In this document: positions 1-9,172 of the stretch, piece after piece
Position numbering within the stretch: the first letter of the stretch is position 1
Layout: the number at the start of each line of letters is the position of its first letter
DNA from: a virus
Length of the DNA stretch: 43,735 nt
Reading direction: 5' to 3' (one strand)
IMG/VR virus record: IMGVR_UViG_3300017991_004323
Span: 1-43,735 of that record
Made by a program: the position numbers and the translations under genes
Notes under the pieces: model-generated
Seen by the model: the letters and a program-made list of their open reading frames with translations, nothing else
What the model was told of the DNA's origin: nothing
The model's database searches: none

Positions 1-1
1 C

Positions 2-255
2 GTGGCAGGTAAATAGGCCCCTGCCAGGACTTGTTGCCGGCACGATCCCGCTCGCGACGCTGGAGTCGTGGCAGGTAAATAGGCCCCTGCCAGGACTTGT
101 TGCCCGCTGGGCAGAGGAGGCAAAGGTGGCCTCGGGTCTCGTGGCAGGTAAATAGGCCCCTGCCAGGACTTGTTGCGGCGCTCAATCGCGATCGCAACGC
201 GCCGCCCACCGACCCCTCTGTGGCAGATAAATAGACCCCTGCCAGGACTTGTTGC
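2..255 (-). CRISPR. CRISPR array (at least 4 repeats, truncated by window edge)
   Basis: Four 36-base repeats lie at 2-37, 68-103, 141-176 and 220-255. The first three are identical and the cas-proximal one differs at two positions. Spacers are 38-67 (30 bases), 104-140 (37) and 177-219 (43), which is unusually uneven. On the minus strand each repeat reads GCAACAAGTCC followed by a 7-bp stem (TGGCAGG/CCTGCCA, 10-base loop) ending one base before the spacer. That is the layout of a type V crRNA 5' handle, so the array is read on the minus strand, the same strand as cas12. Only 10 bases separate the cas12 stop from the array, so there is no room for a separate leader and co-transcription is likely. 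The array continues left of the window. That it is a working array is inferred from the adjacent Cas12. Confidence 0.85.
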
Positions 256-265
256 GCCGTGCCTC

Positions 266-736
266 CTAAGCCTCTTCGCCGCCTTCGTTTTTGCGCTTCA
301 TTTCGAGCGCTCGCTTTTTCGCAATCGTCTTCCTCCTTCGCTTGTTGGGCTTTTCGCTGTAAGTCCACACCTCGTCCGGCTCGAGCGCCGGTCGATCCCA
401 GTTCACCTTCGCGCCGCTCGCGGCGAGGAGGTTGCGAGACGCGTTCACGTCTCGATTCCAGGTCTCTCCACAAGAGCAGGTGAACACCTGCGCAGAGCCG
501 AGGCTGCGGTTCCGCTTCCCGCAAGACCAGCAGGTCTGGCTCGTGTAGGCCGGGTTCAGCGTGTCGATATCCTCGAAGAAGACGTTCTGAAGCGACTTCT
601 TGAGAACGCTCAGCGCCGCGTGCCTCTTGTTCTTGTTGATCCGGTCCTGCTTCTTGTTGTCGCCCGCCTTGTTTCGCTCTTGCATGTGCGCGAGGTTCAT
701 TTCCTCGATCACGCAGTTCTTGTAGCGCCTCCCCAT
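266..736 (-). CDS. C-terminal cas12 fragment (possible reinitiated ORF)
   Basis: This is the 156-codon part of the cas12 frame from the first ATG after the internal TGA. It carries RuvC-II (IEEMNL), the four-cysteine zinc ribbon (TCWSCG and FTCSCG) and RuvC-III (NRDVNAS), then a basic tail. No good ribosome-binding site precedes the ATG; a purine-rich stretch lies about 30 bases upstream. The 22 codons between the TGA and this ATG already fit the Cas12 fold (DLYRRFARDM), so the ATG is not a natural gene start. A separately translated product is possible but unsupported. Listed so the reader sees both halves of the broken gene. Confidence 0.35.
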   Translation of the reverse strand: MGRRYKNCVIEEMNLAHMQERNKAGDNKKQDRINKNKRHAALSVLKKSLQNVFFEDIDTLNPAYTSQTCWSCGKRNRSLGSAQVFTCSCGETWNRDVNASRNLLAASGAKVNWDRPALEPDEVWTYSEKPNKRRRKTIAKKRALEMKRKNEGGEEA

Positions 737-2389
737 GTCGCGGGCGAATCGACGGTAAAGGTCCCGCCTGCTCCCCTGCAGCTGGCCGCGGAGAGGATCG
801 CGTCAATCGGGCCCGAGGTGGAGTTGGCGGCCACGCCAGTGCCAGAGCCAGTCGAGGCAGCTGTCCTCGTCCTGGTCGCGCCACTTCTTGACGAGCTTGG
901 ACAGCTTCTTCGGGCTCCTGAACTGGTGAAGGTTCTTGAACTCCTTCCGGAGGCCTTTCGGAATACAGCCCCGCCCTTCGACCTTGAAGTAAGCGATCAG
1001 GTTATCGACCGCTTCGTTGAAGTCCTTCTTCACGAGGCTCTGGAGGTTCTCCACCTGCTTGGCCTCTCGAAGCCACCAGCAAGGCAAAGCGACCTTGCCC
1101 TCCCTGCCGTCGCTCCCGGAGAACGTCGCGACGACGATCGAGCCGTTGTCGTAGCGCCAGCCGACGTCGATCGCGACGGTGCCTTCCTTCGCTCGGTCCG
1201 GACGGGGTCCGACGTCAGCAAGGCTCAGCTGAACCGACCACTTCAGGCGACGCCCCTCCTTCTTTCGAACGACCTTGGCGTGAGTGATTCGGACTCCCTC
1301 AGGGATCTCGCGCTTCATGAAGAACGGGATTCGAGCCCAGACGGGCTTCTTCCCCTCACTCCTTACGCGGAGGTAGAGGATCGCGTCACCCCTCTTGGCC
1401 GCGCGGTCCCTTCCCGCCACCCAGACGCCAGTCGGATACCGAACGATTCGGGCATGGCCCTGGCCCAGGTCGCCGCTGAAGATTACCTCAGGGGCCTGCT
1501 TCTCCCGCGACTGGTAAGTCTGGCCACCAATAATTCCAGAGCCGTCCCAACTCTTGAACTTCGGCGGGGGGCCCTTCCGGTGTTGACGGAGTGCCTCGTG
1601 ACGCGTGTTCCTGGTGTTCCAGTGTAGTTCAGGAAACCGCTCGCGTCCCTCCTTGGCGGCGTCGCTCTTCGCGTCGTCGAAAGCCTTCTTGTCGTAGGAG
1701 TCCAACTCGCGCGCCTCTTTGCATATTTTTTGCCGATCCTCCCAGGCATTCTTGAGCTTTTTGTGAAGCGCGGAGATCTCCGCCCTCTCTTCCGGGGTGA
1801 GCGTATCGTCTCGATTCTTCGAGTTGCGCTTGCGCTGCTCTTCGTGAACAGCATGAAGCGCCTTCTTGATCGCTGCGTACTTCGCGTCGGCCTCAAGGAT
1901 CTCGTCCTTCAACTCGGTCTTGAGCATGAACTTCATGTCAAGGTCGCGCATGCTGTGGTCGATCTCCACAGTGTCGTTGCGCATGCGCTGACTGTGGAAG
2001 AAGTGATCGTCGACGAACTCGACGCCCTCGAGGAGCAGACCTTCTTCATGCGCACGCCGCCGCATTTCGGCGGAGATCAGGTCTTTGTTGACGCGGTCGC
2101 CTTGCTCAGCAAGCTGGCCCAGGAATCGGTGCTCATTCTCGAACCCGAGGGGAAGGGTTCGGTTCGCCGGGTACTTGTAGACCCGAACCCCCGTGTCCTT
2201 GTACTTGATACCCTTTTCCTTGTCCTTCTCCTTGGCCTTCTTCTTGGCCTTGTTCCGCTTGCGCATGCGCGCACGCTGGGCCTCGCGCAACTCTTCCTTG
2301 CTGCGCTTCTTGCGCCCGCCACGCTTCTTGGTCTTGCTCTGAGTCGTCACGACCCCCCCCCTCCTCACTTGAGCTCCCATCATACTCAC
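266..2389 (-). pseudogene. cas12m: Cas12m-like type V CRISPR effector, interrupted by an in-frame TGA
   Basis: Single-frame gene of 707 codons with one internal TGA at 803-805 (codon 529). Without that stop it would be a complete effector. Codons 1-60 are Lys/Arg-rich. A WDGSG motif at about 281-285 and a beta-rich stretch around 337-390 match the pattern of Cas12m proteins. RuvC-I is IDVGW (D408). After the stop come a helix leading into RuvC-II (IEEMNL, E562), a zinc ribbon (C620, C623, C638, C640) and RuvC-III (NRDVNAS, D647). Family members are roughly 600 aa, use no tracrRNA, and the studied ones bind DNA rather than cut it. Here all three acidic residues are present. The start is ATG at 2389 behind GGAGG. 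As read, translation gives a 528-aa product lacking RuvC-II/III unless TGA is read through. TGA is a normal stop in neighbouring genes. A TnpB-like ancestor is less likely because of the array and length. Confidence 0.8.
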
Positions 2390-3759: not shown

Positions 3760-4023
3760 TTAGCTCCGCTTCTCTAGAGCAGCCCGGCCAGGCAGGCTGA
3801 GGGCAGCGATCTTTTCCCAGCCCAACTCCCTGAAAAGGGCCTCGAAGGTCGCTCTGTAGCAGGTGTCGTAAGTGCCTTCGTGGCTTGCCGTCGAGGTGCC
3901 CGTTCGGAGGCACTCGTCCCGCTGCCGGATCGCGCGCTCGCCCTCCCAGATCGCCAGGAAGGAGAGCGCGTCAAGGACCGTATCCTCTTCGAGCGCGCGG
4001 TCGAGTGCCTCCTTGAGGTTCAC
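3760..4023 (-). CDS. hypothetical protein, 87 aa
   Basis: Not recognised; mostly helical, acidic at the N-terminus (LKEALDRALEEDTVLDALSFLAIWEGERAIRQRDE). The GTG start at 4023 overlaps the stop of the MazG-like gene (GTGA), and the gene ends two bases before the next start, so it belongs to the same operon. The hydrophobic segment around residues 15-27 is not long enough to be a confident membrane helix. Confidence 0.65.
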   Translation of the reverse strand: MNLKEALDRALEEDTVLDALSFLAIWEGERAIRQRDECLRTGTSTASHEGTYDTCYRATFEALFRELGWEKIAALSLPGRAALEKRS

Positions 4024-4754
4024 GCGTAAGCCTGTCGCTGTCGCTCGATCTCGCCAGCCACGTCAGGAGTCGGGTGACCCGGCGCCTTAATGAACTTGCC
4101 CGTCACGGGGTCCTTGCTGGCCGTTGCGATCTTGAGCAGGTTGTTCTCGTCCACGAGCTCGAGCAGCGGGCGGTTCTTCAGGCCGCAGGCGCTCATGGTC
4201 CCGATCGTCACGACCGAGATATCGACGCAACCGTCCGCGATCTCGGTCAGGTCGGGATCGTGGGTGGCTGCGAACTCGAGACCGTCGAACTCGACCTTCG
4301 TCCCCTCGGCCCGCACCGTCACGCCGAGGGCCTCGATCGTCTCCAGGCACTCCTCGAGAATCAGGCGCGCCCGAAGCGTCCGCGTGTGGGCGTCGGGGAC
4401 CGTCGGCACCTGAGGCACTTCTTGGCCGAACCCGTACATCATGTGTTCGACGCGAATCTGGTGATTCGTCTGGTCGCGGTGCTTCGTTTCGACCTCGACG
4501 GGCGCGGCCTCAGCGATCGCGTCGTTGTAGGTGTCCTCACCGAGCCCGTCGAGCTCAGCCAAGCGACGGAGGCCATACCAGACCGCCTTGCCGACCTGCT
4601 CACGCAGGACACCCTTCTTGTTCCAGCGCGAGAGGTATTTGCCCACGTTCCACAGCAGCGCGTCCCGCTCGAGTCCCCAGGCCTTCAGGACCTTGATCGT
4701 CTCGTAGGCGTTCTCCTTGCCGCCGTAGTGATCCGGGTGATCGACCGAGCTCAC
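4020..4754 (-). CDS. DUF3310-MazG-like nucleotide pyrophosphohydrolase fusion
   Basis: Residues 3-70 (VDHPDHYGG, then YLSRWNKKG and a W-Y-G-L-R-R-L helix) match DUF3310, a small phage domain often beside or fused to nucleotide enzymes. Residues about 120-230 carry a MazG/PRA-PH pattern: L-I-L-E-E-C-L-E-T, then D-L-T-E-I-A-D-G-C-V-D, then V-D-E-N-N-L-L-K and a D-P-V-T-G-K-F-I-K-A-P-G-H loop. The acidic E-E-x-x-E and E-x-x-D residues would bind Mg. These enzymes hydrolyse (d)NTPs to monophosphates and may shape the nucleotide pool during infection. The GTG start at 4754 overlaps the upstream TGA and has GGAGG five bases away, so the longer frame to 4802 is rejected. Confidence 0.8.
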   Translation of the reverse strand: MSSVDHPDHYGGKENAYETIKVLKAWGLERDALLWNVGKYLSRWNKKGVLREQVGKAVWYGLRRLAELDGLGEDTYNDAIAEAAPVEVETKHRDQTNHQIRVEHMMYGFGQEVPQVPTVPDAHTRTLRARLILEECLETIEALGVTVRAEGTKVEFDGLEFAATHDPDLTEIADGCVDISVVTIGTMSACGLKNRPLLELVDENNLLKIATASKDPVTGKFIKAPGHPTPDVAGEIERQRQAYA

Positions 4755-4963
4755 AGGCCCTCCTTCACGTTGTTGATCAGGACCGAGGTCGCCTGCGGCC
4801 ACTGCTCACGCGCCTGGTAGCTGGCGTGCGCCGCCGCGGCCTTGGAGTCGTCGGCGAAGACGTCGTAAGACTGCCACCAGCGGGAGTCGCGACTCAGCCG
4901 ACCCTTCTCGCCCATTTCCTGGTGGCGGCACTCGACACGGACACGAAACATGGATCCAGACAC
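4751..4963 (-). CDS. hypothetical protein, 70 aa
   Basis: First gene of the leftward operon. Start is GTG 4963 with AAGGAGGT six bases upstream. The product contains two tryptophans in a S-R-W-W-Q-S-Y-D-V-F stretch and an alanine-rich helix after it. It resembles small phage proteins with a single alpha/beta domain but I cannot name a family. Two CRISPR-repeat-like sequences sit 23 to 97 bases upstream of its start codon, in the same orientation as the mRNA, which makes this leader interesting. GTGA overlap couples it to the DUF3310-MazG gene. Confidence 0.7.
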   Translation of the reverse strand: MSGSMFRVRVECRHQEMGEKGRLSRDSRWWQSYDVFADDSKAAAAHASYQAREQWPQATSVLINNVKEGL

Positions 4964-4985
4964 AGCGACCTCCTTGTTGAGGAAA

Positions 4986-5020
4986 GTGGCAGGTAATAGG
5001 CCCCTGCCAGGAATTGTTGC
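4986..5020 (-). repeat. solo CRISPR repeat in a gene leader
   Basis: A 35-base copy of the array repeat, with one A missing from the loop (TAATAGG for TAAATAGG) and one substitution (GGAATTG for GGACTTG). The 7-bp stem TGGCAGG/CCTGCCA is intact. It lies 22 bases upstream of the GTG at 4963 and would be part of that mRNA's leader, in crRNA-sense orientation. The sequence 3' of it, where a spacer would be, contains the ribosome-binding site and start codon. Confidence 0.8.
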
Positions 5021-5025
5021 CGAGA

Positions 5026-5060
5026 ATGGCAGGCAAATAGGCCCTTGTTGGACTTACTGC
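5026..5060 (-). repeat. degenerate CRISPR repeat copy next to solo repeat
   Basis: A 35-base degenerate copy of the same repeat (starts ATGGCAGGCAAATAGGCCC on the plus strand). It is separated from the neighbouring copy by only five bases, too few for a spacer. One stem arm is changed (CCTTGTT for CCTGCCA), so the hairpin is lost. Together the two fill most of the 159-base gap between the divergent genes at 4963 and 5123. Confidence 0.65.
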
Positions 5061-5122
5061 CACCCGCCGCACCAACCTAACAACCCCAGCCGACAAGTTC
5101 ACGGAAAACTAAAGGTGGCAAG

Positions 5123-5662
5123 GTGAAAACCTGGATCTTGTCCGACCGGAGTCGTATCCTGGCCCCAGCAACGGAACGGGACTGGCAAGGGAGGACCGTG
5201 GACGGAATCGGAACGATCAATCACCTTTTGCAGCCGCCCCCGAAGCGAACTCGCCCCCGCCGTTGCAGCGTCGAAGGGTGCTCGAAGCCGACGAGGGAGA
5301 ACAAGCCGGTCTGTACCGACCATGTGCTTGAGCTCCCCTATGCACGCCGGGTTGCAGAAATGGCCCAGCGGATCGAGAAAGAGCACAAAATGCTCCTCCG
5401 GGGCCGGCGCCCGAACCAAGAATGGCTCCTGGTTGAGGACGCGCTGATCTCGATCGCCTTCCAGGAAGAGGAGGAGGTCCCGACGGTCAAGATCTGCAGG
5501 ACGTGCGACGTCCCTCCCAAGCTTGCGCTCAAGCTGGCGCGGGCCGGCGGGCTTAGCTACCGAGCTCGGAGGCGGAGTCACGTCTTCAACGTGAAGGACG
5601 CGCGCAAGATCGTGATCGCGCGAATCATTGGCCGTGACGGGCCCAGGGCGCGCAGGTCGTAA
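5123..5662 (+). CDS. hypothetical zinc-binding protein, 179 aa
   Basis: First plus-strand gene, GTG start with AGGTGG upstream. Residues 48-67 form a small zinc-binding knuckle of the form C-x4-C-x(n)-C-x2-H (CSVEGCSKPTRENKPVCTDH) of a kind common in phage proteins. A basic C-terminal half includes a C-R-T-C pair and a helix-turn-helix-like stretch (VPPKLALKLARAGGLSYRARRRSH) that could bind nucleic acid. It overlaps the next gene by one base. Function unknown; DNA or RNA binding is an inference from composition. Confidence 0.75.
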   Translation: MKTWILSDRSRILAPATERDWQGRTVDGIGTINHLLQPPPKRTRPRRCSVEGCSKPTRENKPVCTDHVLELPYARRVAEMAQRIEKEHKMLLRGRRPNQEWLLVEDALISIAFQEEEEVPTVKICRTCDVPPKLALKLARAGGLSYRARRRSHVFNVKDARKIVIARIIGRDGPRARRS

Positions 5663-8284: not shown

Positions 8285-8839
8285 CTAGAAAGAGTATTTC
8301 TTCAGCGAGTGGTCGGCCATGACCTTCGTGAACGTGCTGCGGACCGACCACTCGCTTCCGTCGGTCCGCTTGAGCGCCTTGCAGAGATCGCGCACGAGCG
8401 GGCTCGGGAACTCGCCCTGGGTCTTGCTGCTGGCCCGCTTCTTCTTCGTCCTGCGTCGTGAAGTCGTCAAGAGAGCTCCTCTCAGTGAGCCCAAAGGCTC
8501 CTTCTTCTTGGATTCGGGGCGCGGCGGCGTCGAGAAGAAGCTGCTCGCACGGCGCTTCTTGGTCTTCTTCCGAGGCTTGCGAGGCCTCTTGATCTCCTCG
8601 GACGCCTCTTGCTGCTCCGGGTGGGAAACGATCGGCGTCTCGTCGTCCGGCTTGAGCGCGCGGGCGCCACGGACCAGCGAGCGACCGCTGACGTTCCCCT
8701 GGGCGTCGACCCGACGGACCTTGAACTCCGTGCCGCCACCCTCCTTGGACTGCTTGGCGATCACCTTGACTCGAGTCGGGGTGCCCTGGATCGAAATCTT
8801 CCAGGTCGAACCGATCTTGACTTTGCTTGCGCTTGCCAT
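8285..8839 (-). CDS. basic hypothetical protein, 184 aa
   Basis: Residues 1-70 look like a compact beta domain (SKVKIGSTWKISIQGTPTRVKVIA, FKVRRVD). Residues 80-135 are a low-complexity Lys/Arg/Ser linker (KRPRKPRKKTKKRRASS and similar), and a helical C-terminus follows. The composition suggests nucleic-acid binding. Its ATG has AGGAG seven bases upstream, but those bases form the arm of a long hairpin (8848-8895), so translation may be controlled. Confidence 0.7.
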   Translation of the reverse strand: MASASKVKIGSTWKISIQGTPTRVKVIAKQSKEGGGTEFKVRRVDAQGNVSGRSLVRGARALKPDDETPIVSHPEQQEASEEIKRPRKPRKKTKKRRASSFFSTPPRPESKKKEPLGSLRGALLTTSRRRTKKKRASSKTQGEFPSPLVRDLCKALKRTDGSEWSVRSTFTKVMADHSLKKYSF

Positions 8840-9136: not shown

Positions 9137-9172
9137 GCGGCAGGTAAATAGGCCCCTGCTAGGACTTGCTGC
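9137..9172 (-). repeat. solo CRISPR repeat, intergenic
   Basis: A 36-base copy of the array repeat with three substitutions. The stem keeps five Watson-Crick pairs, with one G-U and one C-A. Orientation is the same as the array. It sits alone in the 9110-9324 gap between two minus-strand genes. The remainder of that gap shows no convincing gene; a 43-codon frame ending inside the repeat lacks a ribosome site. Confidence 0.75.

What the first reader, a model, noticed from the sequence alone, without database searches (positions are those of the whole stretch)
4986..5060. CRISPR repeats outside the array, placed in gene leaders
A nearly intact copy of the cas12-array repeat (stem preserved) sits 22 bases before the GTG at 4963, with a decayed copy five bases away. 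Another solo copy sits at 9137-9172. All have the same orientation as the array and the downstream minus-strand genes. Where a spacer would be, the 4986 copy has the ribosome site and start codon. Cas12m is reported to process its own pre-crRNA, so a Cas12m-like protein could bind or cut these mRNAs, or use them as natural crRNA-like guides to control genes. Alternatively the repeats are remnants of arrays.
Basis: partly seen in the sequence, partly recalled or inferred. Interest (0 to 1): 0.87.

Follow-up and report, generated by a model that had tools for sequence, protein, structure and literature searches.

The report
Stray CRISPR repeats in a Cas12m phage
A large, little-known phage that carries its own Cas12m CRISPR system also has single copies of that system's repeat scattered between its genes, one of them just in front of a gene's ribosome-binding site; most are probably leftovers or decoys, but a natural Cas-controlled mRNA leader is not excluded.

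Summary
Near-intact V-M repeats lie at 4986-5020 and 9137-9172, with a decayed one at 5026-5061, all on the minus strand and far above chance. The window is a fragment of a 245-kb phage (99.99% identical) that encodes Cas12m, an 11-repeat array, no detected Cas1, and two further ectopic repeats: one 41 nt before an ATG, one decayed at a gene end. So two of four ectopic loci are true gene leaders; the 9137 copy is 297 nt from the next start. Leader placement is only marginally non-random (p about 0.04, threshold chosen afterwards). Sequences after the solo repeats match nothing else in the phage. Two other Cas12m-bearing phage contigs also carry stray cognate repeats, but at gene 3' ends (antisense) and before a tRNA; two Cas12m plasmids have none detected. 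Stray cognate repeats may thus be common in Cas12m phages, but the leader position is not conserved. I favour ectopic array relics. Rivals are an RNA decoy and a natural Cas12m-responsive leader at 4986, unproven but feasible: engineered versions with other Cas proteins work. In the window's own sequence cas12m carries an in-frame stop (W529*).

The parts
1..256 (-). V-M CRISPR array, cas-proximal end: 4 repeats of 36 nt; continues beyond the window edge
   Evidence: in the parent the array is 113195-113937 with 11 repeats and spacers of 30-43 nt
266..2389 (-). cas12m gene (707 aa in the parent); in the window broken by an in-frame TGA at 803-805 (W529*)
4986..5020 (-). solo repeat S1, stem intact, 22 nt before the GTG at 4963
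5026..5061 (-). decayed repeat S1', 5 nt upstream of S1; original stem lost, refolds with flanking bases
5074..5096 (-). promoter-like motif TTGTCGGCTGGGGTTGTTAGGTT upstream of the tandem repeats (speculative, post hoc)
   Evidence: no sigma-70 match
4969..4975 (-). ribosome-binding site AAGGAGG, in the position of a spacer; can pair with CCTC just after the repeat
   Evidence: sequence; fold
4751..4963 (-). 70-aa ORF of unknown function read from the GTG after S1
4020..4754 (-). DUF3310/MazG-like pyrophosphohydrolase, overlaps the end of the 70-aa ORF (same operon)
9137..9172 (-). solo repeat S2, intergenic, 297 nt upstream of the next called start
8285..8839 (-). 184-aa ORF of unknown function, next gene downstream of S2

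Best explanation
The solo repeats are ectopic, partly decayed copies of the phage's own type V-M (Cas12m) repeat, probably relics of former array ends or mini-arrays. They survive in intergenic spacers, where they do little harm. The closeness of S1 to an RBS is mostly a matter of where a repeat can be tolerated. If transcribed, they can still fold as repeat hairpins (S1 best), so Cas12m may bind or cut them, but no dedicated function in gene control is shown. Shown: repeat identity, positions, Cas12m identity, graded decay, similar stray repeats in other Cas12m phages. Inferred: the origin as relics, and that these RNAs are made.
For: Decay is graded: scores 64, 62, 60, 42 and 38 of 72 at the ectopic sites, and the array's own distal end is degenerate too (42). 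S1 and S1' form a tandem pair 5 nt apart, like a mini-array that lost its spacer. The array's terminal repeat lies 34 nt before the next gene's ATG, the same geometry as S1 (22 nt) and S3 (41 nt), so a leader position can arise simply by being the last repeat next to a gene. Two other Cas12m phage contigs carry stray cognate repeats in other contexts: two right after stop codons, antisense, in IMGVR_UViG_3300031718_000003, and one before tRNA-Met in Rctr197k. There are no trans targets. Pairing cells in the stem are no better than shuffled (93.3 against 93.9%), with no compensatory change.
Against: Three copies (S1, S2, S3) are still 92-94% identical to the array repeat, and S1 and S3 keep all stem pairs (S3 through one G-U), which could mean selection. 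S3's lowest-energy fold is nevertheless a different one. Leader placement is slightly above chance (p about 0.04). All three phage elements examined have stray repeats and neither of two plasmids has one detected (the Pelobacter plasmid was searched only to 3 mismatches), which pure drift does not predict, although n is small. No empty-site or ancestral-array comparison was possible.
Confidence: 0.47

Rival explanations
1. RNA decoy: the solo repeats are transcribed as repeat-mimicking RNAs that occupy Cas12m (of the host, of a competing element, or the phage's own), like RNA anti-CRISPRs (Racrs).
For: Solitary repeat units in phages are known; several work as Racrs, three of them against type V-A, and one is co-transcribed with an acr gene (PMC10651486). 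S1 keeps the repeat hairpin. Stray cognate repeats occur in all three Cas12m phage elements examined.
Against: This phage makes its own Cas12m, which a decoy would also inhibit. No bacterial genome with the core of this repeat was found (three single chance-like hits). The solo repeats described in the earlier surveys are not associated with cas genes (PMC10651486).
Confidence: 0.2
2. Natural Cas-responsive leader: Cas12m binds, and perhaps cuts, the hairpin at S1 (and S3) in the mRNA and thereby blocks the ribosome or destabilises the message, giving feedback control by the phage's Cas12m level.
For: Hairpin, then RBS and GTG at spacer position; second case S3 at 41 nt; promoter-like motif just upstream; Cas12m processes pre-crRNA independently of RuvC (PMC11013384). 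Engineered equivalents work: Cas12 proteins degrade mRNAs with pre-crRNA fragments in the UTR (PMC9943656) and Cas-binding motifs in the 5' UTR control translation (PMC10115826).
Against: Only 2 of 4 loci fit, with marginal significance. Stray repeats in other Cas12m phages are not in protein leaders. S3 follows a terminator-like hairpin with little room for a promoter upstream (sequence). In the window's own sequence cas12m is truncated. No transcript data.
Confidence: 0.2
3. Natural guide: the solo repeat plus the following 20 nt acts as a crRNA that directs Cas12m to a trans target (like scaRNA, tracr-L or CreR).
For: The crRNA layout (repeat then guide) is right, and Cas12m blocks transcription by binding DNA (PMC10442227; PMC11013384).
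Against: Matches of the first 12, 16 and 20 nt elsewhere in the phage are at chance level. The flanking base context at the home site (CCAC) is that of the array repeats, so self-targeting is not expected.
Confidence: 0.07

Closest known systems
Type V-M CRISPR-Cas12m (V-U1)
   Same: Effector matches Cas12m 23vw over residues 122-658 (E 3.5e-43) and PADLOC Cas12u1 (3e-74); D408, E562/E563 and D647 triad; the repeat shares the plan GCAA...CC, hairpin, AC with the A. silvanus V-M array
   Different: Carried by a large phage; N-terminal basic extension of about 110 aa; spacers vary from 30 to 43 nt; stray solo repeats
Solitary repeat units / RNA anti-CRISPRs (Racr; Camara-Wilpert 2023)
   Same: Single CRISPR repeats in intergenic regions of phages, hairpin kept in part
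   Different: Here the phage itself encodes the cognate effector and array; S1 has a partial copy next to it; anti-CRISPR effect untested
Engineered Cas-responsive UTR switches (CARTRIDGE; pre-crRNA in yeast UTRs)
   Same: A Cas-bound repeat hairpin in the 5' UTR close to the start codon
   Different: Those are synthetic, in eukaryotes, with other Cas proteins; here natural, and regulation is not shown
CRISPR-derived regulatory RNAs (scaRNA, tracr-L, CreR; from own knowledge)
   Same: Repeat-like elements outside arrays
   Different: Those need a guide with partial trans complementarity; none found here

Membership tests
Type V-M CRISPR-Cas12m | Effector homologous to Cas12m across most of its length, not only the zinc ribbon | tested here: met
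   residues 122-658, 31% identity to 23vw
Type V-M CRISPR-Cas12m | Adjacent array with 36-37 nt repeats ending in a 3' hairpin, no tracrRNA needed | tested here: met
   compared with the A. silvanus array; tracrRNA itself not tested
Type V-M CRISPR-Cas12m | Self-processing of pre-crRNA; DNA binding without cleavage | not testable with these tools
   Reported for other Cas12m proteins, including D-E-D types (PMC11013384)
Racr / solitary repeat unit | Full-length repeat match, intergenic, not part of an array | tested here: met
   S2 and S3; S1 has a partial neighbour, so it is not strictly solitary
Racr / solitary repeat unit | No cas genes with it; matches a host CRISPR subtype | tested here: not met
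   The phage encodes cas12m; host unknown, no host repeat found
Racr / solitary repeat unit | Expressed small RNA that inhibits the Cas effector | not testable with these tools
   Needs RNA-seq and an interference assay
Natural Cas-responsive leader | Repeat between promoter and RBS of an expressed gene | tested here: inconclusive
   S1 geometry fits; the promoter is only a post hoc motif
Natural Cas-responsive leader | Position conserved in relatives | tested here: inconclusive
   Only a 99.99% identical record found; other Cas12m phages lack leader placement
CRISPR-derived regulatory guide | Guide with trans complementarity above chance | tested here: not met
   within the phage genome; host unknown

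The most novel reading that the evidence does not exclude
The 4986 leader (and 241870 in the parent) is a natural Cas-responsive mRNA switch: the phage's Cas12m binds a solitary repeat directly in front of a ribosome-binding site and controls translation or stability of that message.
Probability: 0.18. Interest if true: 0.85.

Novelty: new variant of a known kind. Interest (0 to 1): 0.45.

Why it matters
Solitary repeats in phages are known as decoys against host CRISPR. Finding them in phages that encode the matching effector raises the question of what such copies do to the phage's own system: relic, brake, or mRNA switch. One copy has the layout that synthetic biologists built by hand to put an mRNA under Cas control, so a natural case can be tested directly with a reporter.

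Tried and rejected
Chance similarity: rejected. Self-targeting guides from array spacers or solo flanks: nothing above shuffles. Protospacers in phage and plasmid records: only weak matches, best E 0.8. Host with the same repeat core: three isolated 18-nt matches whose flanks are unlike the repeat. Conservation in relatives: no diverged relative of this phage found by repeat, cas12m or neighbouring proteins. Target-site duplications as a sign of insertion: absent at the phage's own sites; one 9-nt direct repeat beside one copy in contig 3300031718_000003, p 0.0125 among seven sites tested. Covariation in the stem: none. Known RNA family at the site: none. Cas1 for adaptation: not found in the 245-kb record.

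Full report
What is there. The repeat of the array at the window's left edge is GCAACAAGTCCTGGCAGGGGCCTATTTACCTGCCAC on the minus strand. Outside the array the window holds three copies: S1 at 4986-5020 (score 62 of 72), S1' at 5026-5061 (38) and S2 at 9137-9172 (60). Thirty shuffled windows never exceeded 24.

Where it comes from. The window is a complete IMG/VR record and a fragment. It matches positions 113683-157417 of IMGVR_UViG_3300017971_000001 (245,276 b) with five mismatches. No close relative of this phage was found in IMG/VR or in the phage records. In the parent the array has 11 repeats including a degenerate distal one (113195-113937), with spacers of 30 to 43 nt. No Cas1 match was found in the record.

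The effector. The parent's 707-aa protein aligns over residues 122-658 with a solved Cas12m (E 3.5e-43) and hits PADLOC Cas12u1 at 3e-74. It keeps D408, E562/E563 and D647 (read from the alignments). Cas12m proteins with D-E-D, H-D-D and N-D-D sites bind DNA without cutting dsDNA and take part in pre-crRNA processing, which does not depend on RuvC (PMC11013384). In the window itself one base (position 803) makes an in-frame TGA in place of tryptophan 529, removing RuvC-II, the zinc ribbon and RuvC-III. This may be a real variant or an assembly error.

All ectopic copies. The parent has two more: S3 at 241870-241905 (+, score 64), 41 nt before the ATG of a 175-aa gene, and S4 at 84035-84070 (-, 42), overlapping a stop codon, with the next called gene on the opposite strand. 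S1 is 22 nt before the GTG of a 70-aa gene that overlaps a DUF3310/MazG-like gene. S2 is 297 nt from the next called start. A random intergenic placement falls within 45 nt of a same-strand start with probability 0.083, so two of four has p about 0.04, with a threshold chosen after seeing the data. My gene calls come from a simple codon-usage caller, so distances depend on them.

Structure. S1 folds like the array repeat (-12.6 against -12.5 kcal/mol). S2 loses the outer pair (-7.9). S3 keeps all pairs through one G-U, but its lowest-energy fold is different. S1' refolds with upstream bases. Across 11 distinct copies there is no compensatory change, and pairing is no better than in shuffles. 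After S1, CCTC can pair with GAGG of the RBS.

Guides. The first 12, 16, 20 and 40 nt after each solo repeat, and all ten spacers, match the rest of the phage no better than shuffled sequence. No convincing protospacer was found in phage or plasmid records. The PAM and the host are unknown.

Comparison. I looked at four other Cas12m elements with arrays. Contig IMGVR_UViG_3300031718_000003 has two identical stray copies, both on the + strand just after the stop codons of minus-strand genes. Virus Rctr197k has one stray copy (48 of 72 against its best consensus; shuffles reached 26) just before a tRNA-Met, and a marginal second one. Plasmid pMESIL02 shows no stray copy above its shuffle maximum. 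pPRO1 has none within three mismatches. So stray cognate repeats recur in Cas12m phages, but leader placement does not.

Reading. The graded decay, the tandem S1'/S1 pair, the same geometry at the array's own end (34 nt to the next ATG) and the varied contexts elsewhere favour ectopic relics (0.47). An RNA decoy (0.20) and a Cas12m-responsive leader (0.20) remain open. Both are feasible: three V-A Racrs worked in tests (PMC10651486), and UTR-placed pre-crRNA fragments or Cas-binding motifs bring mRNAs under Cas control in yeast and mammalian cells (PMC9943656, PMC10115826). A trans guide is unlikely (0.07). Nothing here shows that any of these sites is transcribed.

Noticed in passing
window 803-805: In-frame TGA in cas12m (W529*) against TGG in the near-identical 245-kb record; one of five differences in 43.7 kb.
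   Followed up: partly
window 5074-5096 (-) and 5138-5160 (+); parent 113167-113189 (-), 127884-127906 (-): Promoter-like motif TTGTC[CG]G...TA[TG]..T: four sites in 245 kb, all intergenic and upstream of a same-strand gene; two flank repeats (before S1', after the array). The motif was partly built from these sites.
   Followed up: partly
L007 8403-9206 (-) and L122 8060-8935: In this phage the array is followed by an MT-A70 methyltransferase gene, and the A. silvanus Cas12m array by a DNA adenine methylase; possible recurring neighbour.
   Followed up: no
L131 25510-25645 (Rctr197k, minus): Next to the stray repeat, a T-arm plus CCCCCAC is followed after 7 nt by GTGGGGG and a D-arm: tRNA halves in inverted order, possibly a permuted or broken tRNA gene. 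ARAGORN calls no tRNA there.
   Followed up: partly
L133 3186-3222 and 4061-4097: Two identical stray repeats 875 nt apart in a Cas12m phage contig, each right after the stop codon of a minus-strand gene; one is flanked by a 9-nt direct repeat TTTTCAGAC.
   Followed up: partly
window 9137-9172 and 5026-5061; parent 241870-241905: S1', S2 and S3 share A-to-G at repeat position 4, absent from the array consensus; may point to a shared older source.
   Followed up: no
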